Below, piece after piece: positions 2,406 through 32,909 of a stretch of DNA of 32,909 bases. The notes beneath the pieces were generated by a model. The model had not been told where the DNA came from. It saw only the letters and a list, made by a program, of their open reading frames with translations, and made no database searches. Source of the DNA: Myxococcaceae bacterium (GTDB taxonomy: Bacteria; Myxococcota; Myxococcia; Myxococcales; Myxococcaceae); the NCBI GenBank assembly GCA_020247085.1, contig JADCJJ010000401.1, forward strand, positions 1 through 32,909, written 5' to 3'. The translations under genes and the position numbers were made by a program. Each line of letters begins with the position of its first letter. Position 1 is the stretch's first letter.

Positions 2406-3191
2406 ATGTCCATCGACCGGCCCTTCACCATCGCGGGCGTCACCTTCGGCTCGCGCCTCATCGTCGGCACCGGCAAGTACCCCAGCCTCGAGGTGATGCA
2501 GGCGTGCCACGAGGCGTCGGGCGCCGAGCTGGTGACGGTGGCCGTGCGGCGGCTCGACCTGAGCGCGCCGAAGGAGCGCTCGCTGCTGGCCTTCATCGAC
2601 CCGCGCCGCCTGCGCCTGCTGCCCAACACCGCCGGCTGCTACACGGCAGACGACGCGGTGCGCACGTGTCACCTCGCCGCCGAGCTGGGGCTGTCGACGT
2701 GGGTCAAGCTCGAGGTGCTCGGCGACGAGAAGACGCTCTTCCCCGACGTCGAGGCCACCGTCTCGGCCGCCCGGCGCCTCGTGAAGGAGGGCTTCACCGT
2801 GCTCCCCTACACCTCGGACGACGTCATCACCGCGCGCAAGCTCGAGGACGCGGGCTGCGCCGTGGTGATGCCGCTGGCAGCGCCCATCGGCTCGGGGCTG
2901 GGCATTCGCAACCCGCACGCGTTGCGCCTCATCCTCGAGACGGTGAAGGTGCCGGTCATCGTCGACGCGGGCGTGGGCACGGCCAGCGACGCCGCCATCG
3001 CGATGGAGCTCGGCTGCGATGGCCTGCTGCTGAACACCGCCATCGCCGGCGCGAAGGAGCCGGTGCGCATGGCGCGCGCGATGAAGCTCGCCGTCGAGGC
3101 CGGCCGCGACGCGTACCTCGCGGGGCGCATTCCGATGAAGGCCTATGGCTCGGCCTCGAGCCCGCTGACGGGCCTCGTGCACGGCGCATGA
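2406..3191 (+). CDS. thiG: Thiazole synthase ThiG
   Basis: ThiG condenses 1-deoxyxylulose 5-phosphate, dehydroglycine and the ThiS thiocarboxylate into the thiazole phosphate precursor of thiamine. 261 residues, the normal family length. It is a TIM barrel beginning [19 protein letters not shown]. The Schiff-base lysine is Lys101 in WVKLEVLGD. Phosphate-binding loops are visible as [12 protein letters not shown] and [11 protein letters not shown], and the C-terminus has the usual ASSPLTGL. The frame is open further upstream (from 2058), but the homologous start is the ATG at 2406 and the upstream extension would overlap thiS. The stop overlaps the tenI start as ATGA, indicating translational coupling. 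Confidence 0.96.
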
Positions 3192-3790
3192 CGCTCCCCT
3201 TCTCGGTCCTCCTCATCACCGATTGGTCCCGCGGCCCGCACTGGCTCCTCGGCCGCGTGGCGAGGGCGCTCGAGGCGGGGCCAGGCGTGGCGGTGCAGCA
3301 CCGGCACCCCGGCGCGACCGACGCCCAGCACTACGACGAGGGCCTGTCGCTGGCGAGGCTGTGCGCCGCGGCGGGCGCGCCGCTCTTCGTCAACGGCCGC
3401 GTCGACCTGGCCCTCGCCCTCGACGCCCACCTTCACTGCACGACGCGGTCGCTGCGGCCGGACCAGGTGAGGGCCCTGCTGCCGTCGCGGTGGATTTCGA
3501 CGGTCGTGCACGGAGTGGACGACACGGCCTCTGGAGCCGACCTGGCCCTGGTGAGCCCCGTCTTCACGCCCACCTCCAAGCCCGGCGACACGCGTCCGCC
3601 GCTTGGGCCCGAAGGGTTCTCGGCCCTGGCGGCCCGGCTGCCCTGCCCAGCCTTCGCGTTGGGGGGCATCACGCCGGCGTCGGCGGCACGGCTGGGTCAC
3701 CCCCCGGGCGTCGCCGTCATCTCGGCGGTGCTCGAGGCCGATGACCCGGCCGCGGCAGCGGCGGCGCTCCTCAGGGCCACGAGGCGCTGA
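3188..3790 (+). CDS. tenI: TenI-type thiazole tautomerase (ThiE/TenI family)
   Basis: 200-residue TIM-barrel protein of the ThiE/TenI family. It keeps the family pattern [26 protein letters not shown] and GVAVISAVL. Where thiamine-phosphate synthase ThiE has Asn-Asp (Mg ligand) in its VNDR-like motif, this protein has VNGRVDLAL, and where ThiE has the G-Q-x-D segment it has HLHCTTRS. Both Mg-binding Asp residues therefore seem absent, as in Bacillus TenI, which carries NGRVD. The His of STVVHGVDD matches the catalytic His of TenI. The likely role is aromatising the ThiG product. Automatic annotation would probably say ThiE. It overlaps thiG by 4 bases (ATGA) and its 3' end overlaps the convergent lipoprotein gene by 20 bases. 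Confidence 0.8.
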
Positions 3791-4829
3791 AGCTCGCCGC
3801 GGGAATGGTGTAGCAGGCGCCGTTCGCCACGGGGGTGTCGGAGCCGAAGTTCCACTGGCGCACCACGACATTGCTCACCGAACCCGAGAACTGCCCGCTC
3901 GAGGCGCTCTCGGTGGCGGCGGTGAAGGTGACGCTGCCGGACTGCGCGAGGAATTCCCGCGCGCAGCCCGTCGCGGTCGAGCCCGAGAAGGTGCACTGTT
4001 CCCCGAAGCGCAGGCAGGCCTGGCAGTCGCCATAGTTGGCGCCGGTGAACTGACCCGAGAAGGGGAGCGGCAGGGCGCCGGCAGCCGCGCGCACGAGCTC
4101 GAACCCGACCTGCTGCGTCGACGTCGAGAAGTACGCCTCGTTGTACACGGCGCGGGCCGTCGTCGCGTACCGGGCGCGCAGCCGCGTGTACCCGCCGCCC
4201 GGCAGGGCGCCGACGCTCAGGGTCGGGCAGGCCGCGCCGCCGCCCGTCGGCCCCACCCCACCGCCTCCCGCACCGCCGCCGCCCGTCGAGGCGGGCACGC
4301 AGACCCCAGCGATGCACTCGCCGTCGGTTCGGCAGGCCGCGCAGAACGCGCCACCGTTGCCGCAGCGGGTGTTGTTCTGCTCCGAAGTGCCAGCGCGGGC
4401 GCAGACGCCGGTCTCGAGGCGGCACCCGTTGGTGCACGGCGGGGCGCCACCGCCGACGCCGCTGCCACCACCGACGCCGGTGCCGCCACCGCTGCTCCCC
4501 CCCCCAACGGCGACCGTACCGCCGCCTCCGCCCGGCCGGCCTCCAGCCAGTCCGCCGCCGGACCCGCTCACGCCGGCGCCGGTCCCGAAGCCGCCCTCGC
4601 ACCGACCAAAGCTGCACGTCGTGCCGAGCGCGCACTGCATGCACGCTTGGCCGCTGATGCCGCACTCCTGGCTCGTGGGCGTCAACACGCAGCGCCCAGT
4701 GCTGGTGCAGCAGCCAGACGTGCAGGTGCGGGAGTCACACGTCGGCACCCCCGAGCACGAGGTCGCGCTGACTCCGATGAGGAAACCCAACGTCGAGGCG
4801 GCGAAAGCGAGGCGCGTGGAGGCGTTCAT
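3771..4829 (-). CDS. Large Cys/Gly-rich secreted lipoprotein
   Basis: Predicted 352-residue exported protein of unknown function. From the ATG at 4829 it starts MNASTRLAFAASTLGFLIGV, a signal peptide followed by SATSC, a plausible though not ideal lipobox at Cys25. The frame stays open 24 codons further upstream, but those lack signal-peptide character. The mature part has Cys-rich modules (TCDSRTCTSGCC, QACMQCALGTTC), a long Gly/Ser low-complexity linker at about 80-130, a second Cys cluster (CTNGCRLETGVC, FCAACRTDGEC), another Gly linker and a C-terminal globular region of about 140 residues. Cys-knot-like modules joined by Gly linkers are common in myxobacterial surface proteins. Its last codons overlap tenI. 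Confidence 0.8.
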   Translation of the reverse strand: MNASTRLAFAASTLGFLIGVSATSCSGVPTCDSRTCTSGCCTSTGRCVLTPTSQECGISGQACMQCALGTTCSFGRCEGGFGTGAGVSGSGGGLAGGRPGGGGGTVAVGGGSSGGGTGVGGGSGVGGGAPPCTNGCRLETGVCARAGTSEQNNTRCGNGGAFCAACRTDGECIAGVCVPASTGGGGAGGGGVGPTGGGAACPTLSVGALPGGGYTRLRARYATTARAVYNEAYFSTSTQQVGFELVRAAAGALPLPFSGQFTGANYGDCQACLRFGEQCTFSGSTATGCAREFLAQSGSVTFTAATESASSGQFSGSVSNVVVRQWNFGSDTPVANGACYTIPAASFSASWP

Positions 4830-20374: not shown

Positions 20375-22333
20375 ATGAAACCCTCAGTCATCATTGCCCT
20401 CATCGTCGGCGGCGTCATCGGGTTTGCCGTCGGGTCGATGTTCAAGAGCAGCTCGGGCGCCAACGCGCCCTCCATCGCCGCGGCGCCGTCGGCTCCGTCG
20501 GCCCCCAGCGCGCCCCGGCCCTCCGGGCAGGGTGGCGACGAGACGGTCTTCCGCGTGCCGCTCGAGGAGTCGGCGCAGAAGGGCGCCCCCACCGCGCTCG
20601 TCACGATGGTCGAGTTCTCGGACTACCAGTGCCCGTTCTGCTCGCGCGCGAACGACACGGTGAACCAGCTCCAGAAGGAGTACGGCGAGCGCCTGCGCGT
20701 CGTCATGAAGCACAATCCGCTGCCGTTCCACCCGCGCGCCAAGCCCGCGGCCCTCGCGGCGCTTGCCGCTGGTGAGCAGGGCAAGTTCTGGGAGATGCAC
20801 GAGAAGATGTTCCAGACGAAGGCGCTCGAAGACGCGGACCTGGAGCGGCATGCGCAGGAGATCGGCCTCAACGTCGAGAAGTGGAAGGCCGATATGCAGG
20901 CCGAGCGCTTCACCAAGCAGATCGACAAGGAGCAGGCCCTCGCCCAGTCGATCGGCGCGACCGGCACGCCGGCCTTCTTCATCAATGGCAAGAAGCTCTC
21001 GGGTGCGCAGCCCATCGACAGCTTCAAGCGCATCATCGACGCCGAGCTCGGTCGCGCCCAGGAGCTGGTGAAGTCGGGCACGCCAGCTGATCAGGTGTAC
21101 GCGCGCATCATCGAGAAGGGTGTCACCTCGCCGCCCCCGGCGCCGCAGCAGCCGTCCGCGCCGCCCCCGCCGGCCGCCGTGCGCAAGATCGACGTGCCCG
21201 ACGACTCCCCCTCGCGTGGCCCGAAGGCCGCGAAGGTGACCATCGTGGCGTGGTCGGACTTCCAGTGCCCGTTCTGCTCGCGCGTCGTGCCGACGATGAA
21301 GCAGATCGAAGACACCTACGCGAAGGACGTGCGCATCGTCTTCCGTCACCAGCCGCTGCCCTTCCACAACAACGCGAAGCTCGCCGCCGAGGCGACCATG
21401 GCGGCGCACGACCAGGGCAAGTTCTGGCCGATGCACGACAAGCTCTTCGCCAACCAGCAGGCGCTCGACCGCCCGTCGCTGGAGCGGTACGCGCAGGAGC
21501 TCGGCCTCGACGTCGGCAAGTTCAAGGCCGCGCTCGACTCGAACAAGTTCGCCGCCAAGGTGGAGCGTGACTCGAGCGAGGGCATGCAGGTCGGGGCCAA
21601 CGGCACCCCGACGTTCTTCATCAACGGTCGTGAGTTCGTCGGCGCGCAGCCCTTCGAGGCGTTCAAGGGCGTCATCGACGAGGAGCTCAAGAAGGCCGAC
21701 AAGCTGCTCGCCAGCGGCGTGAAGCTCGAGAACCTCTACGCCGAGTTCATGAAGGACGCCGGCAAGGCCCCGCCGCCAGCGGCCCCGGGCGCGCCCGAGC
21801 CCCAGAAGGTGGTGACGGACATCAAGATCGACGGCGCCCCGGCGACTGGCGCGAAGAACGCGCCGGTGACCATCGTCGCCTTCTCCGACTTCCAGTGCCC
21901 GTTCTGCTCGCGGGTGGTGCCGACGCTGCACGACCTCGAGAAGCAGTATTCGGGCAAGCTGAAGATCGTCTTCAAGCACCAGCCGCTTCCCTTCCACAAC
22001 AACGCGAAGATCGCCGCCATGGCGTCGATGGCCGCGCACGAGCAGGGCAAGTTCTGGGAGTACCACGACAAGCTCTTCGCCAATCAGCAGGCGCTCGACC
22101 GGCCGTCGCTCGAGCGGTACGCCGAGGAGCTCAAGCTCGACGTGGGCAAGTTCCGCGCGGCTCTCGACTCGAACAAGTTCGACAAGTACGTCACCGATGA
22201 CTCGAACGAGGGCATGCGGGTGGGCGCCAACGGCACGCCGACGTTCTTCATCAACGGCCGGCAGGTCGTCGGGGCGCAGCCCATCGACGCGTTCAAGTCG
22301 GTCATCGACGACGAGCTGAAGAAGAAGAAGTAA
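20375..22333 (+). CDS. Membrane-anchored protein with three tandem DsbA-like thioredoxin domains
   Basis: 652 residues. An N-terminal hydrophobic anchor (about 5-23, VIIALIVGGVIGFAVG) and an Ala/Pro/Ser linker are followed by three DsbA/Thioredoxin_4 domains joined by Pro-rich linkers (about 253-268 and 465-476). Each has a CPFC redox centre (Cys86/89, Cys298/301, Cys508/511), a cis-Pro loop (TP at 198-199, 411-412, 621-622) and the FFING strand. Domains 2 and 3 are nearly identical over about 150 residues; domain 1 is more diverged. It is expected to act on disulfides outside the cytoplasm. The start ATG at 20375 matches the anchor. No dsbB/dsbD gene is nearby. Confidence 0.92.
   Translation: MKPSVIIALIVGGVIGFAVGSMFKSSSGANAPSIAAAPSAPSAPSAPRPSGQGGDETVFRVPLEESAQKGAPTALVTMVEFSDYQCPFCSRANDTVNQLQKEYGERLRVVMKHNPLPFHPRAKPAALAALAAGEQGKFWEMHEKMFQTKALEDADLERHAQEIGLNVEKWKADMQAERFTKQIDKEQALAQSIGATGTPAFFINGKKLSGAQPIDSFKRIIDAELGRAQELVKSGTPADQVYARIIEKGVTSPPPAPQQPSAPPPPAAVRKIDVPDDSPSRGPKAAKVTIVAWSDFQCPFCSRVVPTMKQIEDTYAKDVRIVFRHQPLPFHNNAKLAAEATMAAHDQGKFWPMHDKLFANQQALDRPSLERYAQELGLDVGKFKAALDSNKFAAKVERDSSEGMQVGANGTPTFFINGREFVGAQPFEAFKGVIDEELKKADKLLASGVKLENLYAEFMKDAGKAPPPAAPGAPEPQKVVTDIKIDGAPATGAKNAPVTIVAFSDFQCPFCSRVVPTLHDLEKQYSGKLKIVFKHQPLPFHNNAKIAAMASMAAHEQGKFWEYHDKLFANQQALDRPSLERYAEELKLDVGKFRAALDSNKFDKYVTDDSNEGMRVGANGTPTFFINGRQVVGAQPIDAFKSVIDDELKKKK
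21236..22324 (+). repeat. Intragenic tandem repeat (DsbA domains 2 and 3)
   Basis: Bases 21236-21694 and 21866-22324 encode almost the same 153-residue segment, offset by 630 bases with no gaps. Long nucleotide stretches are identical or differ at single sites, which points to a recent in-frame duplication or ongoing gene conversion. Confidence 0.85.
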
Positions 22334-22364
22334 GCCCATCACGCCCACGTGCGTGAAGGTGACG

Positions 22365-22409
22365 CTGGCCGGTGACGCCCCTCGCAGCGGGGGGCTGGTC
22401 ACCGGCCAG
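22365..22409 (+). terminator. Strong hairpin downstream of the triple DsbA-like gene
   Basis: CTGGCCGGTGAC (22365-22376) pairs perfectly with GTCACCGGCCAG (22398-22409), and an inner GCCCC/GGGGC pairing fills most of the loop. It begins 31 bases after the stop codon. There is no trailing T-run, so it may be a terminator, an mRNA 3' stabiliser or both. Confidence 0.55.
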
Positions 22410-22462
22410 TGTCGTTGGTGGGCCATGACAGCGGCGCCCCCGGGCATTACGAGGTGAGTCCG

Positions 22463-22978: not shown

Positions 22979-23221
22979 AATCGACAGGCCGCGGCCCGGG
23001 GCCCCATGACGCAGCGCCTCACGCCCGGAGACGACCGGCGTGGGTCCACGGGCCTCACTCTCGAACGATCACGGCCTCTTCCGCGCTGACGCAGCGCATC
23101 GTCTCGGATCGCTCATGGCAGGCATGAGGCCTTCCCGCTTGCTTGGCCGCAGGTCGCGTGAGACTTCGCCCGGGTCAGCCAGGCTTTTCCTCCAGCTTCT
23201 CCCCGAAAGAGACCTCGAGCC
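22979..23221. other. Intergenic region upstream of pckG with an 11-bp direct repeat
   Basis: 243 bases without a supportable gene. TGACGCAGCGC occurs at 23007-23017 and 23087-23097, 80 bases apart. GGCCGCGGCC palindromic sequence lies near the start. Likely leader and promoter of pckG, but I cannot identify promoter boxes. Confidence 0.4.
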
Positions 23222-24991
23222 ATGCCCACGGTCACGACGAACCTCACGACGAACCAACGCCTGCTCGACTGGGTCAGCGAGATGGCGGCGATGACGACCC
23301 CGGACCAGGTCGTCTGGTGCGACGGCAGCGCCGACGAGAAGAAGCGCCTCACCGAGTACGCGGTGTCGAAAGGCATCCTCATTCCGCTGAGTCAGCAGAA
23401 GCACCCGGGGTGCTACCTGCATCGGTCGAACCCCAACGACGTGGCGCGCGTCGAGCACCTCACCTTCATCTGTACGCCGACGAAGGAAGAGGCCGGCCCG
23501 ACGAACAACTGGAAGCCGCCCGACGAGGCCTACGCGATGCTCAAGGGCCTGTTCGCGGGCTCGATGAAGGGCCGCACGATGTACGTGGTGCCCTACGTGA
23601 TGGGGCCGCTGGGCAGCCCGCACTCGAAGATCGGCATCGAGGTGACCGACTCGGTCTACGTGGCGCTCAACATGGGCATCATGACGCGCATGGGGAGGCC
23701 GGCGCTCGAGATGCTCGGCGACTCGAACGACTTCAACCGGGGCCTGCACTGCACGGGTGACCTCAACCCCGATCGCCGGTCGATCTGCCACTTCCCGCAG
23801 GACAACACGATCTGGAGCTTCGGCTCGGGCTACGGCGGCAACGCGCTGCTGGGCAAGAAGTGCCTCGCGCTGCGCATCGGCAGCTACCTCGGGCGCAAGG
23901 AGGGCTGGCTCGCGGAGCACATGCTCATCCTCGGCGTCGAGGACCCGGACGGCCGCACGACGTATGTGGCTGCGGCCTTCCCGTCGGCGTGCGGGAAGAC
24001 GAACTTCGCGATGATGATCCCGCCCAAGCGCTTCGACGGGTGGAAGGTGTACACGGTGGGTGACGACATCGCCTGGCTGCGCGTCGGCGAAGACGGGCGG
24101 CTCTGGGCCGTGAACCCCGAGAACGGGTACTTCGGCGTCGCGCCGGGTACCAACTGGCAGTCGAACCCCAACGCGATGAAGACCATCGCGAAGGACACCA
24201 TCTTCACCAACGTCGCGGTGACGAAGGACCTGCAGGTCTGGTGGGAGGGGCTCGACGGCGAAGTGCCCGAGGAGCTCACCGACTGGAAGGGCCAGCCCTG
24301 GAAGCGCGGGTCGAGCGAGAAGGCCGCGCACCCCAACTCGCGCTTCACGGCGCCGGCCTCGAACAACCCCATGCTGTCGTCGTTCGTCAACGACCCGCGG
24401 GGCGTGCCCATCAGCGCCATCATCTTCGGCGGCCGGCGGTCGAACACGATCCCGCTGGTGATGCAGTCGTTCAACTGGGCCCACGGCGTTTACCTGGGAG
24501 CGACGCTGGCCTCCGAGACGACCGCGGCGGCGACAGGGCAGCAGGGCGTCGTGCGCCGCGACCCGATGGCGATGCTGCCCTTCGCCGGGTACAACGTCGC
24601 TGATTACTTCGAGCACTGGCTCAAGATGCAGAGTCGCATTCCGTACCCGCCGAAGATCTTCATGGTGAACTGGTTCCGGAAGAACAAGGACGGCAAGTTC
24701 CTCTGGCCGGGGTACGGCGACAACATGCGGGTGCTGAAGTGGATCGTCGATCGCGCACACGGGAGCGTCGGCGCGCAGGAGACGCTCTTCGGCTGGGTGC
24801 CCAAGCAGGGCCACATCGACCTTTCGGGGCTCGACATCGACCCGGCGCGGGTCGACGAAGCGACCAACATCAACGAGGCCGAGTGGAAGGACGAGTTGAC
24901 GAGCCAGAAGCAGTTCTTCGAGCAGTTCGGCGAGCGCATGCCGAAGACGCTCGACCTCGTCCGGCAGACGCTCCTGTCTCGCCTGTCCTGA
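23222..24991 (+). CDS. pckG: Phosphoenolpyruvate carboxykinase (GTP)
   Basis: 589-residue GTP-dependent PEPCK, catalysing oxaloacetate + GTP to PEP + GDP + CO2, the entry step of gluconeogenesis. Diagnostic motifs: kinase-1a P-loop FPSACGKTN with the hyper-reactive Cys257 that marks the GTP type, kinase-2 VGDDIAWLR, GYGGNALLGKKCLALRI in the substrate and metal region, and NWFRKNKDGKFLWPGYGDN near the nucleotide base site. Length is within the normal range. The start ATG at 23222 begins MPTVTTNLT. Consistent with amino-acid-fed metabolism in predatory myxobacteria. It is followed 94 bases later by a tRNA. Confidence 0.97.
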   Translation: MPTVTTNLTTNQRLLDWVSEMAAMTTPDQVVWCDGSADEKKRLTEYAVSKGILIPLSQQKHPGCYLHRSNPNDVARVEHLTFICTPTKEEAGPTNNWKPPDEAYAMLKGLFAGSMKGRTMYVVPYVMGPLGSPHSKIGIEVTDSVYVALNMGIMTRMGRPALEMLGDSNDFNRGLHCTGDLNPDRRSICHFPQDNTIWSFGSGYGGNALLGKKCLALRIGSYLGRKEGWLAEHMLILGVEDPDGRTTYVAAAFPSACGKTNFAMMIPPKRFDGWKVYTVGDDIAWLRVGEDGRLWAVNPENGYFGVAPGTNWQSNPNAMKTIAKDTIFTNVAVTKDLQVWWEGLDGEVPEELTDWKGQPWKRGSSEKAAHPNSRFTAPASNNPMLSSFVNDPRGVPISAIIFGGRRSNTIPLVMQSFNWAHGVYLGATLASETTAAATGQQGVVRRDPMAMLPFAGYNVADYFEHWLKMQSRIPYPPKIFMVNWFRKNKDGKFLWPGYGDNMRVLKWIVDRAHGSVGAQETLFGWVPKQGHIDLSGLDIDPARVDEATNINEAEWKDELTSQKQFFEQFGERMPKTLDLVRQTLLSRLS

Positions 24992-25085
24992 GCGAGCGGG
25001 TACGGGTGCCCCCGGGCAGCGGGTCGTGCGCGGGGCTTCCGTCGCCGGTCGAGCGGCGCGCGCGCTCCACGTGCGCGCTGGTGAC

Positions 25086-25157
25086 GGGCCCATAGCTCAA
25101 CGGTAGAGCTGGCCGCTCATAACGGCTTGGTTGCAGGTTCGAATCCTGCTGGGCCCA
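25086..25157 (+). tRNA. tRNA with anticodon CAU, probably tRNA-Ile2
   Basis: Folds into a full cloverleaf of 72 bases: acceptor GGGCCCA/TGGGCCC, D-arm GCTC/GAGC with a 7-base loop, anticodon stem GGCCG/CGGCT around CTCATAA (anticodon CAT), 5-base variable loop TGGTT, T-arm GCAGG/CCTGC with loop TTCGAAT, discriminator A73. CCA is not encoded. It is not an initiator: base pair 1-72 is G-C and the GGG/CCC anticodon-stem pairs are absent. C4-G69 and C5-G68 match the known TilS (lysidine) identity pairs, and the TTGGT region resembles tRNA-Ile2. An elongator tRNA-Met remains possible. Confidence 0.93.
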
Positions 25158-28033: not shown

Positions 28034-29797
28034 ATGCCCATTCGATTCAACGACACCAGCCTCGGCGCCGCCTACTCGACGTTCGAGGCGCAGCGGCGCA
28101 GCAACCCGAACCTCAAGCTGGGGCAGGAGCAGGTGCTGCAGCTGGTGGCGCTGGTCGGCGACGGCCACCGGGGGTGGTCGGCGAGCAAGGTGGCCAGCGA
28201 GCTGAAGAAGCCGGGGCTGTCGCGTGAGCAGCAGCTCGCCCTCGTCAAGGGCGGCATGACGGCGTCGGAGAAGCTCGATCTCGCGGCGATCCTCGACCAG
28301 GGCACGGTGCCGCTCGAGCCGGGCGCGCGCCAGTTCCTCGAGGCGGTGCTCGACCGGTCGAGCCCGCAACCGCCGCCTCCGCCGCCCGCTTCGAACGGGC
28401 TGTCGATCTCAGGCGATCAGAAGAACGGGCTGTCGGGCGTGACGAAGGCGGGCGCGACCATCGAGGCCATCAACATTTCGACGGCGCCGACGGGCCGGCT
28501 CCACATGGACGACACGGCGGTCATCGGAAAGGCCGACGCCTCGGGCCGCTTCTCGATGGCGAAGCTCACCGGCGACCAGGCGATGCGCGAGGGCGACCTC
28601 GTCAGGATGCGGGCGCGCTACGCCGACGGCTCCACCTCGGACTGGGTGACGGTGAAGGCCACCGGCATCGCGGCCAAGGACACCAGCAACGCGGCCGTCG
28701 CCCTCTTCCGCATCGGGCTCACCGACGCCGGCACCGGCAAGGTGTCGGTCGCCAACATCAACGCGAGCCGGCAGGTCTCGGAGCCAGGCGCCCAGCTCCA
28801 GTTCACCAACCTGCGCAGCGGCGAGAAGACGAAGGTCACTGTCACCGAGACCGGCGGCTTCCCCGAGGGGTTCTCACTCAACGGCAAGGCCGGGGACTCG
28901 TTCTCGGTCGCCGCCAGCGACGGCGTGAACAACACCGGCTTCACCGAGCTGGTAGGCAACGTGACGGTGCCCGGCGGCGCGCCGTCGGGCCGAGACCTCA
29001 TCCCCGACCCGGCGCTGCACAAGGACGAGCTCGATGCCGCCGGCAAGCCGCGCTTCAGCAAGGCGACGTTCACCGGGCCCCTCTTCATCGACGGCGCGCG
29101 CGCCGAGGACGTGCAGCAGGGGCAGATCGGCGACTGCTACTTCCCGGCGGCGATGGCGGCCATCGCCAAGGCCAACCCCGACGCCATCAACAACCTGGTG
29201 AAGGACAACGGCAACGGCACCTACACGGTGACCTTCAAGGAGAAGGACTGGGCGACGGGGCGCTTCAAGGACGTTCCGGTCACGGTCGACGGCGACCTCT
29301 GGGCGCGCTCCTACGGCGGGCCCCTCTACGGCCGCAGCGCCAATAGCTCCGACACCCGGAAGATGGAGCTGTGGTTTCCGCTCGTCGAGAAGGCCTACGC
29401 GCAGTGGAAGGGCAGCTACGACACCATCGGTAACGGCGGGCATTCGAGCGACGTCTTCGAGGCGGTGCTCGGCCGTGAGGGCCAGCAGATGAGCATCTAT
29501 GCCGGCAACCTCGACCGCGTCTTCGACACCATCAAGAAGGCCGTCGACGCGAAGCAGCCAGTGGCCGCCGGGACGTACGGCGAGAGCGAAGAGGCCCGCT
29601 ACACGAACTCGGGCGTCTACGCCGACCATGCCTATTCCATCCTCGGGTACGAGCAGACGGGCAGCGAGAAGTACGTCGTGTTGCGCAACCCCTGGGGTGA
29701 GTCGGAGCCCTCGGGCAACGGGGCCAACGACGGCATCTTCAAGTTGAAGCTGCAGGACTTCGCGAAGCTGTACCAGAACGTGATGTACCTGAACTGA
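28034..29797 (+). CDS. Calpain-family (C2) cysteine protease with N-terminal modules
   Basis: 587 residues. Residues 1-105 form a helical domain (QEQVLQLVALVG, LSREQQLALVKGGMT). A Pro-rich linker follows (about 110-119), then two beta-sandwich-like modules (about 122-210 and 220-315), each with a GDxxxV or GDSFSV strand. The C-terminal 235 residues are a calpain catalytic domain: QQGQIGDCYFPAAMAAIA gives oxyanion Gln362 and nucleophile Cys368, YADHAYSILG gives His532, and LRNPWGESEP gives Asn552. No signal peptide and no calcium EF-hand. The same N-terminal modules recur in the frameshifted gene at 31950. A 117-residue gene follows after 9 bases. The substrate and the role of the modules are unknown. 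Confidence 0.92.
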   Translation: MPIRFNDTSLGAAYSTFEAQRRSNPNLKLGQEQVLQLVALVGDGHRGWSASKVASELKKPGLSREQQLALVKGGMTASEKLDLAAILDQGTVPLEPGARQFLEAVLDRSSPQPPPPPPASNGLSISGDQKNGLSGVTKAGATIEAINISTAPTGRLHMDDTAVIGKADASGRFSMAKLTGDQAMREGDLVRMRARYADGSTSDWVTVKATGIAAKDTSNAAVALFRIGLTDAGTGKVSVANINASRQVSEPGAQLQFTNLRSGEKTKVTVTETGGFPEGFSLNGKAGDSFSVAASDGVNNTGFTELVGNVTVPGGAPSGRDLIPDPALHKDELDAAGKPRFSKATFTGPLFIDGARAEDVQQGQIGDCYFPAAMAAIAKANPDAINNLVKDNGNGTYTVTFKEKDWATGRFKDVPVTVDGDLWARSYGGPLYGRSANSSDTRKMELWFPLVEKAYAQWKGSYDTIGNGGHSSDVFEAVLGREGQQMSIYAGNLDRVFDTIKKAVDAKQPVAAGTYGESEEARYTNSGVYADHAYSILGYEQTGSEKYVVLRNPWGESEPSGNGANDGIFKLKLQDFAKLYQNVMYLN

Positions 29798-29806
29798 GGC
29801 ACGCGA

Positions 29807-30160
29807 ATGGCCCTGCCCCCCGAGCCCATCGAAGAAGTGCTGCCGAGCGCCGCCTGGGTCGTCGAGGCCGAGGTGGCCGAGGTGCTGGCCACCGGCCCCG
29901 CGCCGCCGAAACCGACGGGTGTCCGGCCGGGGGCGACCAGCGTCGGGTACAAGGCGGCGGCGCAGACGGTGAAGCTGCGGGTGATGCGCGTGCTCAAGGG
30001 CGCGCCCACGACCGAGCTCGTCGTCGAGAAGCCCGTCGGCGCCTACTCCCTCAAGCCCGGCAACAAGGGGCCGTTCCTCGTCGACGCCGCGAAGACCATC
30101 CTCGGGCGCTACGGGCCCGACTCGTGGCACCCCGACCGGGTGAAGCAGGCGCTGGGCTGA
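29807..30160 (+). CDS. Small protein of unknown function, possible partner/inhibitor of the calpain
   Basis: 117 residues, no cysteine and no signal peptide. It starts at ATG 29807 with GAGG 7 bases upstream, only 9 bases after the calpain stop, so the two are almost certainly cotranscribed. Strand pattern SAAWVVEAEVAEVL, a Pro-rich loop, then TVKLRVMRVLKGAPTTELVV resembles the NTR/TIMP-like fold signature (VxAxVxxV ... VxLRVxxVLKG), a fold used by some protease inhibitors; this is a weak resemblance and an inference. The C-terminal half (SLKPGNKGPFLVDAAKTILG, RYGPDSWHPD) is not recognised. A cognate immunity or inhibitor role is plausible from position. Confidence 0.75.
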   Translation: MALPPEPIEEVLPSAAWVVEAEVAEVLATGPAPPKPTGVRPGATSVGYKAAAQTVKLRVMRVLKGAPTTELVVEKPVGAYSLKPGNKGPFLVDAAKTILGRYGPDSWHPDRVKQALG

Positions 30161-30180
30161 GGCGCCGGCCGCTCCGGTCA

Positions 30181-31416
30181 TCACCTTCGGGGGCGCGCGC
30201 TGCTGCCGGGCTCCGCACGGCGGGGCCCGGTCACCACCACCTCGACGGGGTCCGGGCCCGTGTCGGCATCACGTCGGTCGGTGGCCTCGTGCGTGGAGAA
30301 GGGGACAAGCGGCTCGGACGCCACCTCGTGCACCTCGAGCTCGAGGTACGCGGCGTCACCCGTCGGGGCCGCGTACCGAGCCTCGCCTCGCGAGGCGAGC
30401 CGCAGGGCGCCCATCGGCCGGTACTCGCGCAAGGGCGTTGACCAGCGCCGCGGCACCAGCGTCTTCCCGTCCTCGTCGAGCGCAGGGCGATCATCGGACC
30501 AGAAGTCGACGAGCGCGCCCGAGGCCGCGAAGACGAGCACGGAGCGGATCTCGTGCGGGCCGTTGGTGAACGTCGCCTCGACGCGTGTCGAGTCGAGCGC
30601 CCGCCAGCGAACCTTCGGGTCCAGCAGCGCCGCGGGTGAGAAGACCGCCATGTCGTTGAGCAGGGTCACCGTCTCGGTGCGCATGAAGTCAGCCCCGCCG
30701 ACGTCGACCACCGGGAGCACCGACAGCACCCGCACCCGCATGCTCGCGTCGGCCTCGGTGTAGGCGTGCAGGCCGTCGACCGGCACCCCGCCCCGGCTCG
30801 CCTTCATCCAGAAGAAGCGGCGTGGCGGCGAGAAGAAGTTCACCTGCTCGGCCTCGAACGGCATCCACGGAGCCGTCGCCCCGGAGCGGATTCTGCCGGT
30901 CATTCGCGCCCGAAAGCCCGCGGGGCGGGGCCTGCCGACGACGCCGGCGAAGCGCAGGTAGCGCTGCACGGGCGCTGGGAGCGCCGCGACGTCTGTCTCG
31001 GTGACGACGCCCGCGCTGCTCACCTGAGGGCCGCCCGCGCCGGCTTCGCGCACCAGGCCCTCGTACGCGGCCCGCAAGCCGAACGGCCCCCACGCCGCCC
31101 CGCCGTACACCACCGCGACGGCGAGGAGGGCGTTGCCGAGCGTGCCGAAGCGCGCGTCCTGCCAGGCCGTGGCGAGCACGAGCTGAGAGCTGACGAGACC
31201 GACGGCCCCGACGAGCCAGAACCACCGAGGCCAGGCGAGGAGCGCGACGACCCCGGCCATCAGCACGACGCCCGCGAGGCCCCAGGCGCCGGCCATGGCG
31301 CGAGTGATGGGCGTGCGCAGCGCCTCGAGCGGCGCCAGCCCCAGGCCCTTCACGACGCCGAGAGCGTGGAGCAGCGCGTGCGCGGAGAGCACCACGGCGA
31401 AGGCGATGCGGGCCAT
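30181..31416 (-). CDS. DUF6544-family membrane protein
   Basis: 411 residues from the ATG at 31416, which has a GAGGCGGGCGGC stretch upstream; the open frame extends 10 codons further. The N-terminal third contains about four transmembrane helices (MARIAFAVVLSAHALLHALG, then AWGLAGVVLMAGVVALLAWP, WLVGAVGLVSSQLVLATA and LGNALLAVAVVYGGAAW). The cytosolic or periplasmic remainder has the DUF6544 pattern LPAPVQRYLRFAGVVGRPRP, then PPRRFFWMKASRGG, VTLLNDMAVFSPAALL and ALVDFWSDDRP. Function is unknown for the family. It is convergent with the 117-residue gene, 20 bases apart, and faces away from the second calpain copy. Confidence 0.85.
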   Translation of the reverse strand: MARIAFAVVLSAHALLHALGVVKGLGLAPLEALRTPITRAMAGAWGLAGVVLMAGVVALLAWPRWFWLVGAVGLVSSQLVLATAWQDARFGTLGNALLAVAVVYGGAAWGPFGLRAAYEGLVREAGAGGPQVSSAGVVTETDVAALPAPVQRYLRFAGVVGRPRPAGFRARMTGRIRSGATAPWMPFEAEQVNFFSPPRRFFWMKASRGGVPVDGLHAYTEADASMRVRVLSVLPVVDVGGADFMRTETVTLLNDMAVFSPAALLDPKVRWRALDSTRVEATFTNGPHEIRSVLVFAASGALVDFWSDDRPALDEDGKTLVPRRWSTPLREYRPMGALRLASRGEARYAAPTGDAAYLELEVHEVASEPLVPFSTHEATDRRDADTGPDPVEVVVTGPRRAEPGSSARPRR

Positions 31417-31949
31417 GCCGCCCGCCTCATGCAACGAGCCGACCACGTCGTGCCCTCACCGGCGCTTCGGCGCACTCGACGGCCCACGCACTCGCCTGCG
31501 CCCAGGGGTGTCCGCCGCGCAAGCGCTGCGTCGGCAGCGCAGGCGGCGCGGCCAATGCGGCCTCACGGGGCGTGCCGTCGCCGGGCCCCGCGTCGCCACG
31601 AATGCCAGGGCCGCGTCCCCGGTCGTCGTCGAGAGCGCCTGGGGCTCGCTTCATCGCGACGAGCCGGGCTTGGAGACCGGGCGGCTTCGGCGCCAGCCGC
31701 TCGACGGCTGAACCGCCCGATGCAACCCTTCGCGCTCACGCCCCGCGCCCTTTGCCTCGCGCGCCCCGCCGCGCCCTCACCCGTGTCACCGACCACCACC
31801 GGGGCGGCCGGCCATGACCTTCCGAAAACCGGAACGAGCACCTCGAAGCACTCTCGCAGCGGTGCGCGTGGCGGCAGGGGCCGGCGTGGCAGGAGGCACG
31901 GTGTCGGCGCGGCCCCTGGCGTCGGACTCGCCTGCCCCGAGTCACCGCC
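31417..31949. other. 533-bp region without a supportable gene
   Basis: Open frames here lack domain motifs and consistent codon bias. Visible structure: a hairpin with GCGCTGC (31523-31529) pairing with GCAGCGC (31534-31540) around GTCG, with flanking CCGCC/GGCGG arms. A frame beginning at ATG 31814 stays open into the second calpain copy, but its third-position GC is low across 31950-32105, so I treat it as non-coding. Could hold decayed coding sequence. Confidence 0.5.
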
Positions 31950-32909
31950 TTGCCATCGTTCTCAGACCGTCGCTTCGCCGCGCTCGTCTCGAGGGCCGAA
32001 GCCCGGCAGCGCACAGCCCCGGGCCGGCCGCTCCCACGGGAGCAGGTGCTGCGGCTCCTGGCCGAGCTCGGCGACCGCGGCGGGCGCTCGAGCCGGGCGG
32101 TGCTCACCGCGCGCCGAACCTGTCTCGGGAGGAGCAGGTCGCCCTCGTCCGCCGCGGCGTGACCGAGGCAGAGCATCGAGGCCTGGCCGACCGGCAGCTC
32201 CTCGACGCGGACCTCTCGCAGCCCGTGAGCCCCACGCCGGCCACGGGCCTGACCATCACTGGTGACCAGCGCGACGGCCTTTCGGACATGACGCGGGCCG
32301 GCGCGCAGCTCGAAGCCATCAACCGGTCGGCCGCGCCCACCGGCCGCTACTGCCTCGACGACACCACGGTGGTCGGCCAGGGCGGGCGGGACGGCTCGTT
32401 CTCGCTGGCCAAGCTCACCGGCGACCTGGCGATGCGGGAGGGAGACGGGGTGCGCGTGCGGGCCCGCTTCGACGACGGCACCACCAGCGACTGGGTCACC
32501 CTCAACGCCACGGGCCTCGGCGGCCGCGACACGCGCCACGCCGCGATCGCGCTGTTCCGCATCAGGCTCACCGCGGCTGGCCCGGGCACCATCACCGTCA
32601 CCAACATCGACGACAGCTGGCAGAGCAGCGAGCCGGGCGTCCGGCTCCGCTTCGTCAACCAGCGCACCCGCGAGGCCACCACCGTGACCCTCGACGCGCG
32701 CGGCACCTTCCCGGCGGGCCTGACGCTCAAGGGCCGGGCGGGCGACGTGTTCTCGGTCGCCGCCTCCGACGGCGCGGACAACGTCGACTTCGCCGAGGTG
32801 GCAGGAGCCCTGACGGTGCCGGGCGGCCAACCCGGCACGCGAGACCTCGTGCCCGACCCGGGGCTCCACCGCGACGAGCTCGACGCCTGGGGGAAGGCCC
32901 GCTTCGGCA
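31950..32909 (+). pseudogene. Second copy of calpain N-terminal modules, frameshifted, cut by the window end
   Basis: Paralog of the 28034 calpain gene. From 31950 (TTG where the first copy has ATG) frame 3 reads helical-domain sequence like the first copy (LPREQVLRLLAELGDRGG). At about 32105-32116 homology moves to another frame, APNLSREEQVALVRRGVTEA, and then stays open to the window end. From GDQRDG at 32261 onward it is collinear with the first copy (28412 onward, offset 3849) without gaps for 642 bases, covering both beta modules and the RDLVPDPGLHRDELDAWGK junction. Start-to-module distance is 311 versus 378 bases, a change not divisible by three. The catalytic domain, if any, lies outside the window. 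Confidence 0.8.

What the first reader, a model, noticed from the sequence alone, without database searches (positions are those of the whole stretch)
28034..32909. Calpain protease locus with shared N-terminal modules, a small adjacent partner and a tandem second copy
The intact calpain (Cys368/His532/Asn552) carries an N-terminal helical domain and two beta modules that reappear, gap-free over the modules, in a second copy 3.8 kb downstream. A small cytosolic-looking protein follows the intact gene after 9 bases. Constant N-terminal modules, a toxic-type protease at the C-terminus, an adjacent small gene and a tandem partial copy resemble the layout of polymorphic effector/immunity loci. Motifs and duplication are seen directly; the effector role is inference.
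Basis: partly seen in the sequence, partly recalled or inferred. Interest (0 to 1): 0.62.

Follow-up and report, generated by a model that had tools for sequence, protein, structure and literature searches.

The report
Bacterial calpain with TIMP-like partner
In Myxococcota (many of them social predatory soil bacteria), a calpain-type protein-cutting enzyme is almost always encoded right beside a small protein whose predicted shape matches animal TIMPs (protease inhibitors) and netrin-like domains, which suggests a dedicated inhibitor that keeps the enzyme safe inside the cell.

Summary
The finding is real. The window is a whole 32,909-bp MAG contig of a Myxococcaceae-like genome. The 587-aa calpain (28034-29797) has an intact Cys/His/Asn triad, an N-terminal helical domain and two beta modules. 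The 117-aa gene 9 bp downstream is not incidental. It founds a phylum-restricted family: 53 copies in 35 of 195 Myxococcota genomes, 49 of them beside a calpain that carries the modules (46 downstream, 3 upstream). It is absent from the calpain genomes that lack such calpains. It tracks the calpain's divergence as closely as the calpain's own beta modules do (r 0.89 versus 0.90). Its predicted fold is TIMP/NTR-like: agrin NtA Z 10.1, TIMP-1/-2/-3 about Z 7. It has almost no cysteine and no Pfam match.

Best reading: a cysteine protease with a dedicated cytosolic inhibitor, laid out like staphopain/staphostatin but with both proteins from other families. Inhibition itself is inferred.

Polymorphic-effector reading: partly supported. 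The helical domain also fronts several non-calpain enzymes, one of which has its own, unrelated small neighbour. However, the beta modules stay with calpains and the window locus is syntenic in the genus. The tandem copy is a decaying, frameshifted piece cut by the contig end.

The parts
28034..29797 (+). Module-calpain gene, 587 aa, catalytic triad C368 (29135-29137), H532 (29627-29629), N552 (29687-29689)
   Evidence: triad invariant in 42 relatives; model matches m-calpain core Z 27
28034..28357 (+). N-terminal six-helix domain (residues 1-108), also found fused to several non-calpain enzymes
28394..28972 (+). Two beta modules (residues ~121-313), bacterial-Ig-like in the model
   Evidence: Big_6 sub-threshold; structural similarity to the Bap C region and SiiE; beta only in the model
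28985..29794 (+). Calpain (peptidase C2) catalytic core, residues ~318-587
   Evidence: Pfam PF00648 E 2.6e-31; phmmer to calpain-8 E 7e-17; Z 27.0, 264 residues, 2.8 A to 3bow
29807..30160 (+). 117-aa partner gene with predicted TIMP/NTR-like fold; candidate dedicated calpain inhibitor
   Evidence: family alignments; adjacency; model; agrin NtA Z 10.1 and TIMPs ~7
31950..32909 (+). Decayed second copy of the calpain N-terminus and beta modules, frameshifted, truncated by the contig end
   Evidence: likely continuation on contigs C554 and C32

Best explanation
A two-gene protease/inhibitor unit. The first gene encodes a calpain-family cysteine protease with N-terminal targeting or scaffold modules. 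The second, starting 9 bp later, encodes a small cytosolic protein of TIMP/NTR-like fold that binds its calpain and holds it inactive in the producing cell, so that the enzyme acts only after release or on a signal. By analogy with TIMPs, whose N-terminal strand enters the protease cleft, the invariant N-terminus (M-A-x-P-P-E) would contact the calpain active-site cleft. Shown: intact protease, conserved pairing, co-inheritance, predicted fold. Inferred: binding, inhibition, the N-terminal wedge, and where the protease finally acts.
For: Pairing: 46 of 53 family hits lie directly downstream of a calpain catalytic domain, 3 lie upstream, 4 are orphans. In GTDB genomes 44 of 48 loci are adjacent to a module-calpain. 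All 35 genomes with the gene are among the 38 with the N-terminal region; no genome whose calpains lack it has the gene. Gene order is swapped at three loci (L100 and L110; L076), so the link outlives operon order. Co-inheritance: partner versus protease-core distances r 0.887 over 41 pairs, versus 0.896 for beta modules and 0.788 for the helical domain of the same protein; permutation maximum 0.22 or less. Fold: model pLDDT 77.5; best matches are agrin NtA Z 10.1 over 97 residues at 2.6 A, then meteorin and PCOLCE NTR and TIMP-1/-2/-3, with model residue 2 aligned to TIMP residue 2 in several rows; found again in the joint model. Conservation: the N-terminus MA-PPE and the GRYGPD motif are invariant or nearly so in the alignment gathered without motif selection. 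Catalytic triad invariant in paired calpains. Precedent: staphopain/staphostatin, SpeB/Spi and Bacteroides C10/inhibitor pairs are co-transcribed, with inhibitors up- or downstream (PMC3462683).
Against: No biochemical evidence. The read-through joint model gave no interface measure, so binding is untested. About 17 module-calpains in some seven clades lack the gene nearby, although nearly all their genomes hold a paired copy elsewhere. Four orphan copies exist, two of them just downstream of Hsp70/DnaK-like genes. The family has almost no cysteine (45 of 49 have none), so the TIMP zinc-chelation mechanism cannot apply. Sequence-level homology to TIMPs is weak (hhalign P 0.027). Tight linkage alone could give the distance correlation.
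Confidence: 0.55

Rival explanations
1. Interbacterial or predatory effector with an immunity protein: the calpain is delivered into prey or rival cells through its N-terminal domain, and the small protein is the cognate immunity protein.
For: The helical domain is a constant N-terminus on calpain, transglutaminase-like, TGase-elicitor and PPDK-type proteins. The transglutaminase-like type has its own unrelated small neighbour. Orphan small genes exist, as is common for immunity genes. Layout precedent: papain-like Cpe1 with Cpi1, including a Myxococcales locus (PMC12136450).
Against: No known delivery domain or secretion genes at the locus. The window locus is syntenic within the genus. No C-terminal swapping was seen for the beta modules. 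The partner is about as conserved as the protease (mean distance 0.475 versus 0.419), not hypervariable.
Confidence: 0.25
2. The small protein is a folding or secretion chaperone, or a regulatory subunit, of the calpain rather than an inhibitor.
For: Tight pairing is equally expected for a chaperone. Two orphan copies lie next to Hsp70/DnaK-like genes. NTR domains such as agrin NtA and PCOLCE are binding modules, not inhibitors.
Against: The fold is not that of known secretion chaperones and resembles protease-binding NTR/TIMP domains. Bacterial papain-like proteases repeatedly carry neighbouring inhibitors.
Confidence: 0.15
3. Plain intracellular housekeeping protease; the neighbouring gene is an unrelated co-transcribed gene kept by operon inertia.
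For: Conserved chromosomal position within the genus; no signal peptide is evident on either protein (sequence reading only).
Against: Pairing recurs at unrelated loci and in swapped order, and the gene is confined to genomes with hits to the calpain's N-terminal region.
Confidence: 0.05

Closest known systems
Staphopain/staphostatin (C47/I57), with SpeB/Spi and Bacteroides C10 protease/Bfi-Bti pairs
   Same: Papain-fold cysteine protease gene with a small inhibitor gene a few bases away, up- or downstream; the staphylococcal inhibitors are cytosolic beta-barrel proteins (PMC3462683, PMC7863939).
   Different: The protease here is calpain family C2 with helical and beta modules. The partner has an NTR/TIMP-like predicted fold, not the staphostatin fold, and matches no inhibitor family in Pfam.
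TIMPs and NTR domains (agrin NtA, meteorin, PCOLCE)
   Same: Predicted fold and topology: extended N-terminus, helix, long strand A, barrel, C-terminal helix; model residues 2-117 align with TIMP-1 residues 2-122.
   Different: Almost no cysteines, so no N-terminal Cys for zinc and no disulfides. Cytosolic, bacterial, and beside a cysteine protease. Sequence relation not significant.
Calpain and calpastatin
   Same: The protease core is a calpain, Z 27 to m-calpain, and a specific inhibitor is proposed.
   Different: Calpastatin is an unfolded polypeptide that orders on binding calpain (PMC7863939); here the partner is a folded domain encoded beside the protease. Bacterial calpains are reported to lack the calcium sites (PMC4631099).
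Cpe1/Cpi1 interbacterial protease toxin and immunity
   Same: Papain-like protease with an adjacent small cognate protein; distance correlation between partners; a Myxococcales example is shown in that paper (PMC12136450).
   Different: Cpe1 is attached to T6SS/CDI delivery domains and is a different peptidase family; no such domains here.

Membership tests
Calpain family C2 (PF00648) | Peptidase_C2 domain above curated cut-off with Cys-His-Asn triad | tested here: met
   109 bits versus cut-off 23.8; C368/H532/N552 invariant in 42 relatives
Calpain family C2 (PF00648) | Calpain protease-core fold | tested here: met
   Z 27.0, 264 residues, 2.8 A to 3bow chain A
Calpain family C2 (PF00648) | Calcium-binding sites of the protease core | not tested
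   Reported absent in bacterial homologues (PMC4631099); not checked residue by residue here
TIMP / NTR superfamily (partner protein) | NTR-type OB barrel with flanking helices | tested here: met
   Predicted model only: agrin NtA Z 10.1; TIMPs 6.5-7.5; Foldseek best E 7e-3
TIMP / NTR superfamily (partner protein) | Conserved cysteines, N-terminal Cys for zinc chelation | tested here: not met
   45 of 49 members have no Cys; N-terminus is M-A-x-P-P-E
TIMP / NTR superfamily (partner protein) | Significant sequence-profile similarity | tested here: inconclusive
   No Pfam or PDB sequence hit; hhalign to TIMP profile P 0.027, score 18.1 versus shuffled maximum 16.1 of 100
Staphostatin (I57) | Small cytosolic protein encoded beside a papain-fold cysteine protease | tested here: met
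   localisation read from sequence only
Staphostatin (I57) | Staphostatin family profile | tested here: not met
   No Pfam match for the window protein, and no inhibitor family among 49 members
Polymorphic toxin/immunity systems | Constant N-terminal region joined to alternative C-terminal enzymes | tested here: met
   Helical domain on at least four non-calpain types; the beta modules were found only with calpain
Polymorphic toxin/immunity systems | Adjacent cognate small gene | tested here: met
   49 of 53 hits adjacent to a calpain
Polymorphic toxin/immunity systems | Known trafficking or delivery domain | tested here: not met
   None in Pfam, NCBIfam or PADLOC scans
Polymorphic toxin/immunity systems | Toxicity and specific protection by the partner | not testable with these tools
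   needs experiment

The most novel reading that the evidence does not exclude
A bacterial TIMP-fold protein that works as a cytosolic inhibitor of a calpain: the same protease-blocking fold as animal TIMPs, used against a cysteine protease through a cysteine-free N-terminal wedge, and part of a wider Myxococcota set in which one N-terminal helical domain carries different enzymes, some with their own small partner gene.
Probability: 0.3. Interest if true: 0.8.

Novelty: new variant of a known kind. Interest (0 to 1): 0.6.

Why it matters
The papers reviewed here describe no bacterial calpain with a known inhibitor; the 2015 survey says that perhaps no bacterial calpain has been properly characterised at all (PMC4631099). 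A conserved, easily expressed two-gene unit makes function testable. If the partner inhibits, it extends the TIMP/NTR fold to bacteria and to cysteine proteases, and bears on how calpains were controlled before calpastatin. The shared N-terminal domain offers a handle for finding other effector-like enzymes in uncultured Myxococcota.

Tried and rejected
Sequence-only searches for the partner (Pfam at E 10, NCBIfam at E 1, PADLOC at E 0.1, PDB sequences at E 10) gave nothing for the window protein and nothing consistent for the family. A profile search of viral contigs found no relative, so there is no sign of phage carriage. Foldseek against viral structures gave no convincing match.

A joint read-through model (calpain stop read as Gly, 708 aa) was made to look for contacts; it gave good domain models but the tool returns no interface score, so no claim of binding rests on it.

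Rejected: the tandem copy as a functional second effector (frameshift, likely IS66 border, Asn to Thr). Rejected: the small gene as a general calpain partner (absent where calpains lack the N-terminal modules). Considered and dropped: in-frame stop read-through to make a fusion; about half of the pairs are out of frame.

A structural search for the helical domain alone was not done (prediction cap reached).
Full report
What the window is. The window is the complete contig C337 (32,909 bp) of a 7.36-Mb, 641-contig genome. Relatives that carry the same gene pair are titled Myxococcaceae, Archangium or Myxococcales MAGs.

The calpain. ORF 28034-29797 encodes 587 aa. Pfam finds Peptidase_C2 at residues 350-562 (E 2.6e-31, well over the curated cut-off) and only sub-threshold Ig-like matches further upstream. 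In a 42-row alignment C368, H532 and N552 are invariant. The model (mean pLDDT 84.6) shows six helices (residues 8-105), a proline-rich linker, beta modules (about 121-313) and a protease core. The core matches m-calpain at Z 27.0 over 264 residues, and the beta modules resemble Ig-like adhesin repeats.

The small gene. The 117-aa ORF starts 9 bp after the calpain TGA. A homologue follows the second, about 51%-identical calpain of the same genome on contig C126. A profile search of 195 Myxococcota genomes found 53 copies in 35 genomes. Against the calpain positions, 46 lie 75-169 bp beyond a Peptidase_C2 domain end on the same strand, that is, directly downstream; three lie directly upstream (G158, G183, G032); four are orphans. 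One calpain coordinate in that script (G157:C840) was approximated by hand; the adjacency there is shown independently by locus L097. All 35 genomes are among the 38 with hits to the N-terminal region; the overlap has Fisher p about 1.6e-35, although related genomes are not independent. In 63 genomes with any calpain, none lacking the N-terminal region has the small gene.

A motif-based scan of 84,980 species gave 48 loci, all titled as Myxococcota or Deltaproteobacteria MAGs apart from one plain 'bacterium'; 44 are adjacent to a module-calpain. These genomes overlap strongly with the 195 above. Because that scan selected for two motifs, conservation is judged on alignment A3, which was gathered without them: M1, A2, P5, Q53, L57, K75, P76, G100, G103, P104 and D105 are invariant in 41 sequences, and P4, E6, R101 and Y102 nearly so.

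Co-inheritance. Over 41 pairs, partner-to-protease distance correlation is r 0.887. It is 0.896 between the protease and its own beta modules, and 0.788 between the protease and its own helical domain; permutations never exceed 0.22. The partner behaves evolutionarily like a part of the calpain. Linkage alone could produce this, so it shows a stable pair, not binding.

Exceptions. About 17 module-calpains have no such neighbour; on a tree they fall into several clades (7 parsimony changes among 62 tips), with no common substitute gene seen downstream. Nearly all of those genomes hold a paired copy elsewhere. Two orphan small genes sit 72-78 bp downstream of Hsp70/DnaK-like ORFs in different families. 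This is unexplained.

Fold of the partner. The AlphaFold model from 49 sequences has mean pLDDT 77.5 and order helix, five strands, helix. Against solved structures the best matches are agrin NtA (Z 10.1, 97 residues, 2.6 A), meteorin NTR (8.1), PCOLCE NTR (7.6) and TIMP-1/-3/-2 (7.5/7.2/6.8); the next unrelated rows are near Z 6. Several TIMP rows start at residue 2 in both chains, so the conserved N-terminus overlies the strand that TIMPs insert into metalloprotease clefts (the latter from general knowledge of TIMPs). Foldseek E-values are only marginal (best 7e-3), and a Z near 10 on a pLDDT-77 model is a fold assignment, not proof of homology. Profile-profile comparison with TIMP-1/2/3 gives P 0.027, above 100 column shuffles; a comparison with TIMP-1 alone (P 0.09) aligns PPEP with PPHP. 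No cysteine is present in 45 of 49 members, so TIMP chemistry at zinc is excluded. It is therefore not filed as a TIMP; it is a protein with a TIMP/NTR-like predicted fold.

The N-terminal domain on other enzymes. With a 19-row profile the helical domain has 72 hits in 35 genomes. About 60 belong to calpains. Others front a transglutaminase-like enzyme (L069, L134, L135), a P-domain protein distantly related to a TGase-elicitor protein (L066, L067, and L137 with a weaker match), a PPDK_N protein (L068), and an unassigned type (L064, L065, with a weaker match in L070). The transglutaminase-like proteins share a conserved ~80-aa gene directly upstream in three genomes, unrelated in sequence to the calpain partner. 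This supports a constant-domain/variable-enzyme pattern with cognate small genes for at least two enzyme types. Against a classical polymorphic toxin: no delivery domain, stable synteny within the genus, no swapping of the beta modules, and a partner about as conserved as the enzyme.

The second copy. It is frameshifted in the helical domain and runs off the contig. The exact 100-bp overlap with C554, the IS66-like transposase after residue ~454 there (named from reading the ORF, not from a family scan), and the C32 piece that starts with 25 shared bases and carries LRTPWAG instead of LRNPWG indicate a decayed copy. The joins are inferred from contig ends of a MAG.

Mechanism. Precedents are close in layout: staphopains with staphostatins, SpeB with Spi, and Bacteroides C10 proteases with staphostatin-like inhibitors up- or downstream, co-transcribed (PMC3462683; PMC7863939). 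The simplest explanation is a dedicated inhibitor that protects the producing cell from its own calpain. Whether the calpain is exported to digest prey, injected into competitors, or activated inside the cell is open.

Novelty. The papers consulted on bacterial calpains (PMC4631099, PMC9380684) mention no Myxococcota by name and no neighbouring inhibitor in the passages searched, and literature searches for bacterial TIMP/NTR-like inhibitors found none. The library is open-access only, so absence is weak evidence. Rated as a new variant of a known kind: protease plus neighbouring cytosolic inhibitor, with new families on both sides.

Noticed in passing
L109 (2569-2925) and L131 (5001-5390): Orphan copies of the small gene lie 72-78 bp downstream of Hsp70/DnaK-like ORFs in two different families; unexplained and possibly relevant to function.
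   Followed up: partly
L069 1350-1658, L134 2830-3183, L135 2787-3302: A conserved ~80-aa gene of a second, unrelated family sits directly upstream of helical-domain/transglutaminase-like proteins in three genomes.
   Followed up: partly
L064 1319-3502, L065 1630-3744, L070 1534-3519: Helical domain fused to a ~600-aa conserved C-terminal region with no convincing Pfam family (motifs THLGAY, TYCAEHKT); possibly a new enzyme family.
   Followed up: no
L008 (C554) 2736-3980: Calpain fragment bordered by an IS66-like transposase ORF; its first 100 bp equal the last 100 bp of the window, a contig-end overlap.
   Followed up: yes
L006 (C538) 409-1407: A short 332-aa calpain without beta modules, with a related-looking short helical N-terminus, is followed by a right-handed beta-helix-like protein and has no NTR-fold neighbour.
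   Followed up: partly
195 Myxococcota genomes: Calpains are common and multicopy here (63 of 195 genomes, up to 8 per genome, very varied N-termini); the 2015 survey of bacterial calpains does not name Myxococcota.
   Followed up: partly
30181-31446 (-): Convergent DUF6544/DUF6920 protein ends about 20 bp from the small gene and bounds the two-gene unit.
   Followed up: no
20384-22447 (-) and 23069-25093 (-): Two long ORFs of similar length (687 and 674 aa) with no Pfam match at E 0.001.
   Followed up: no
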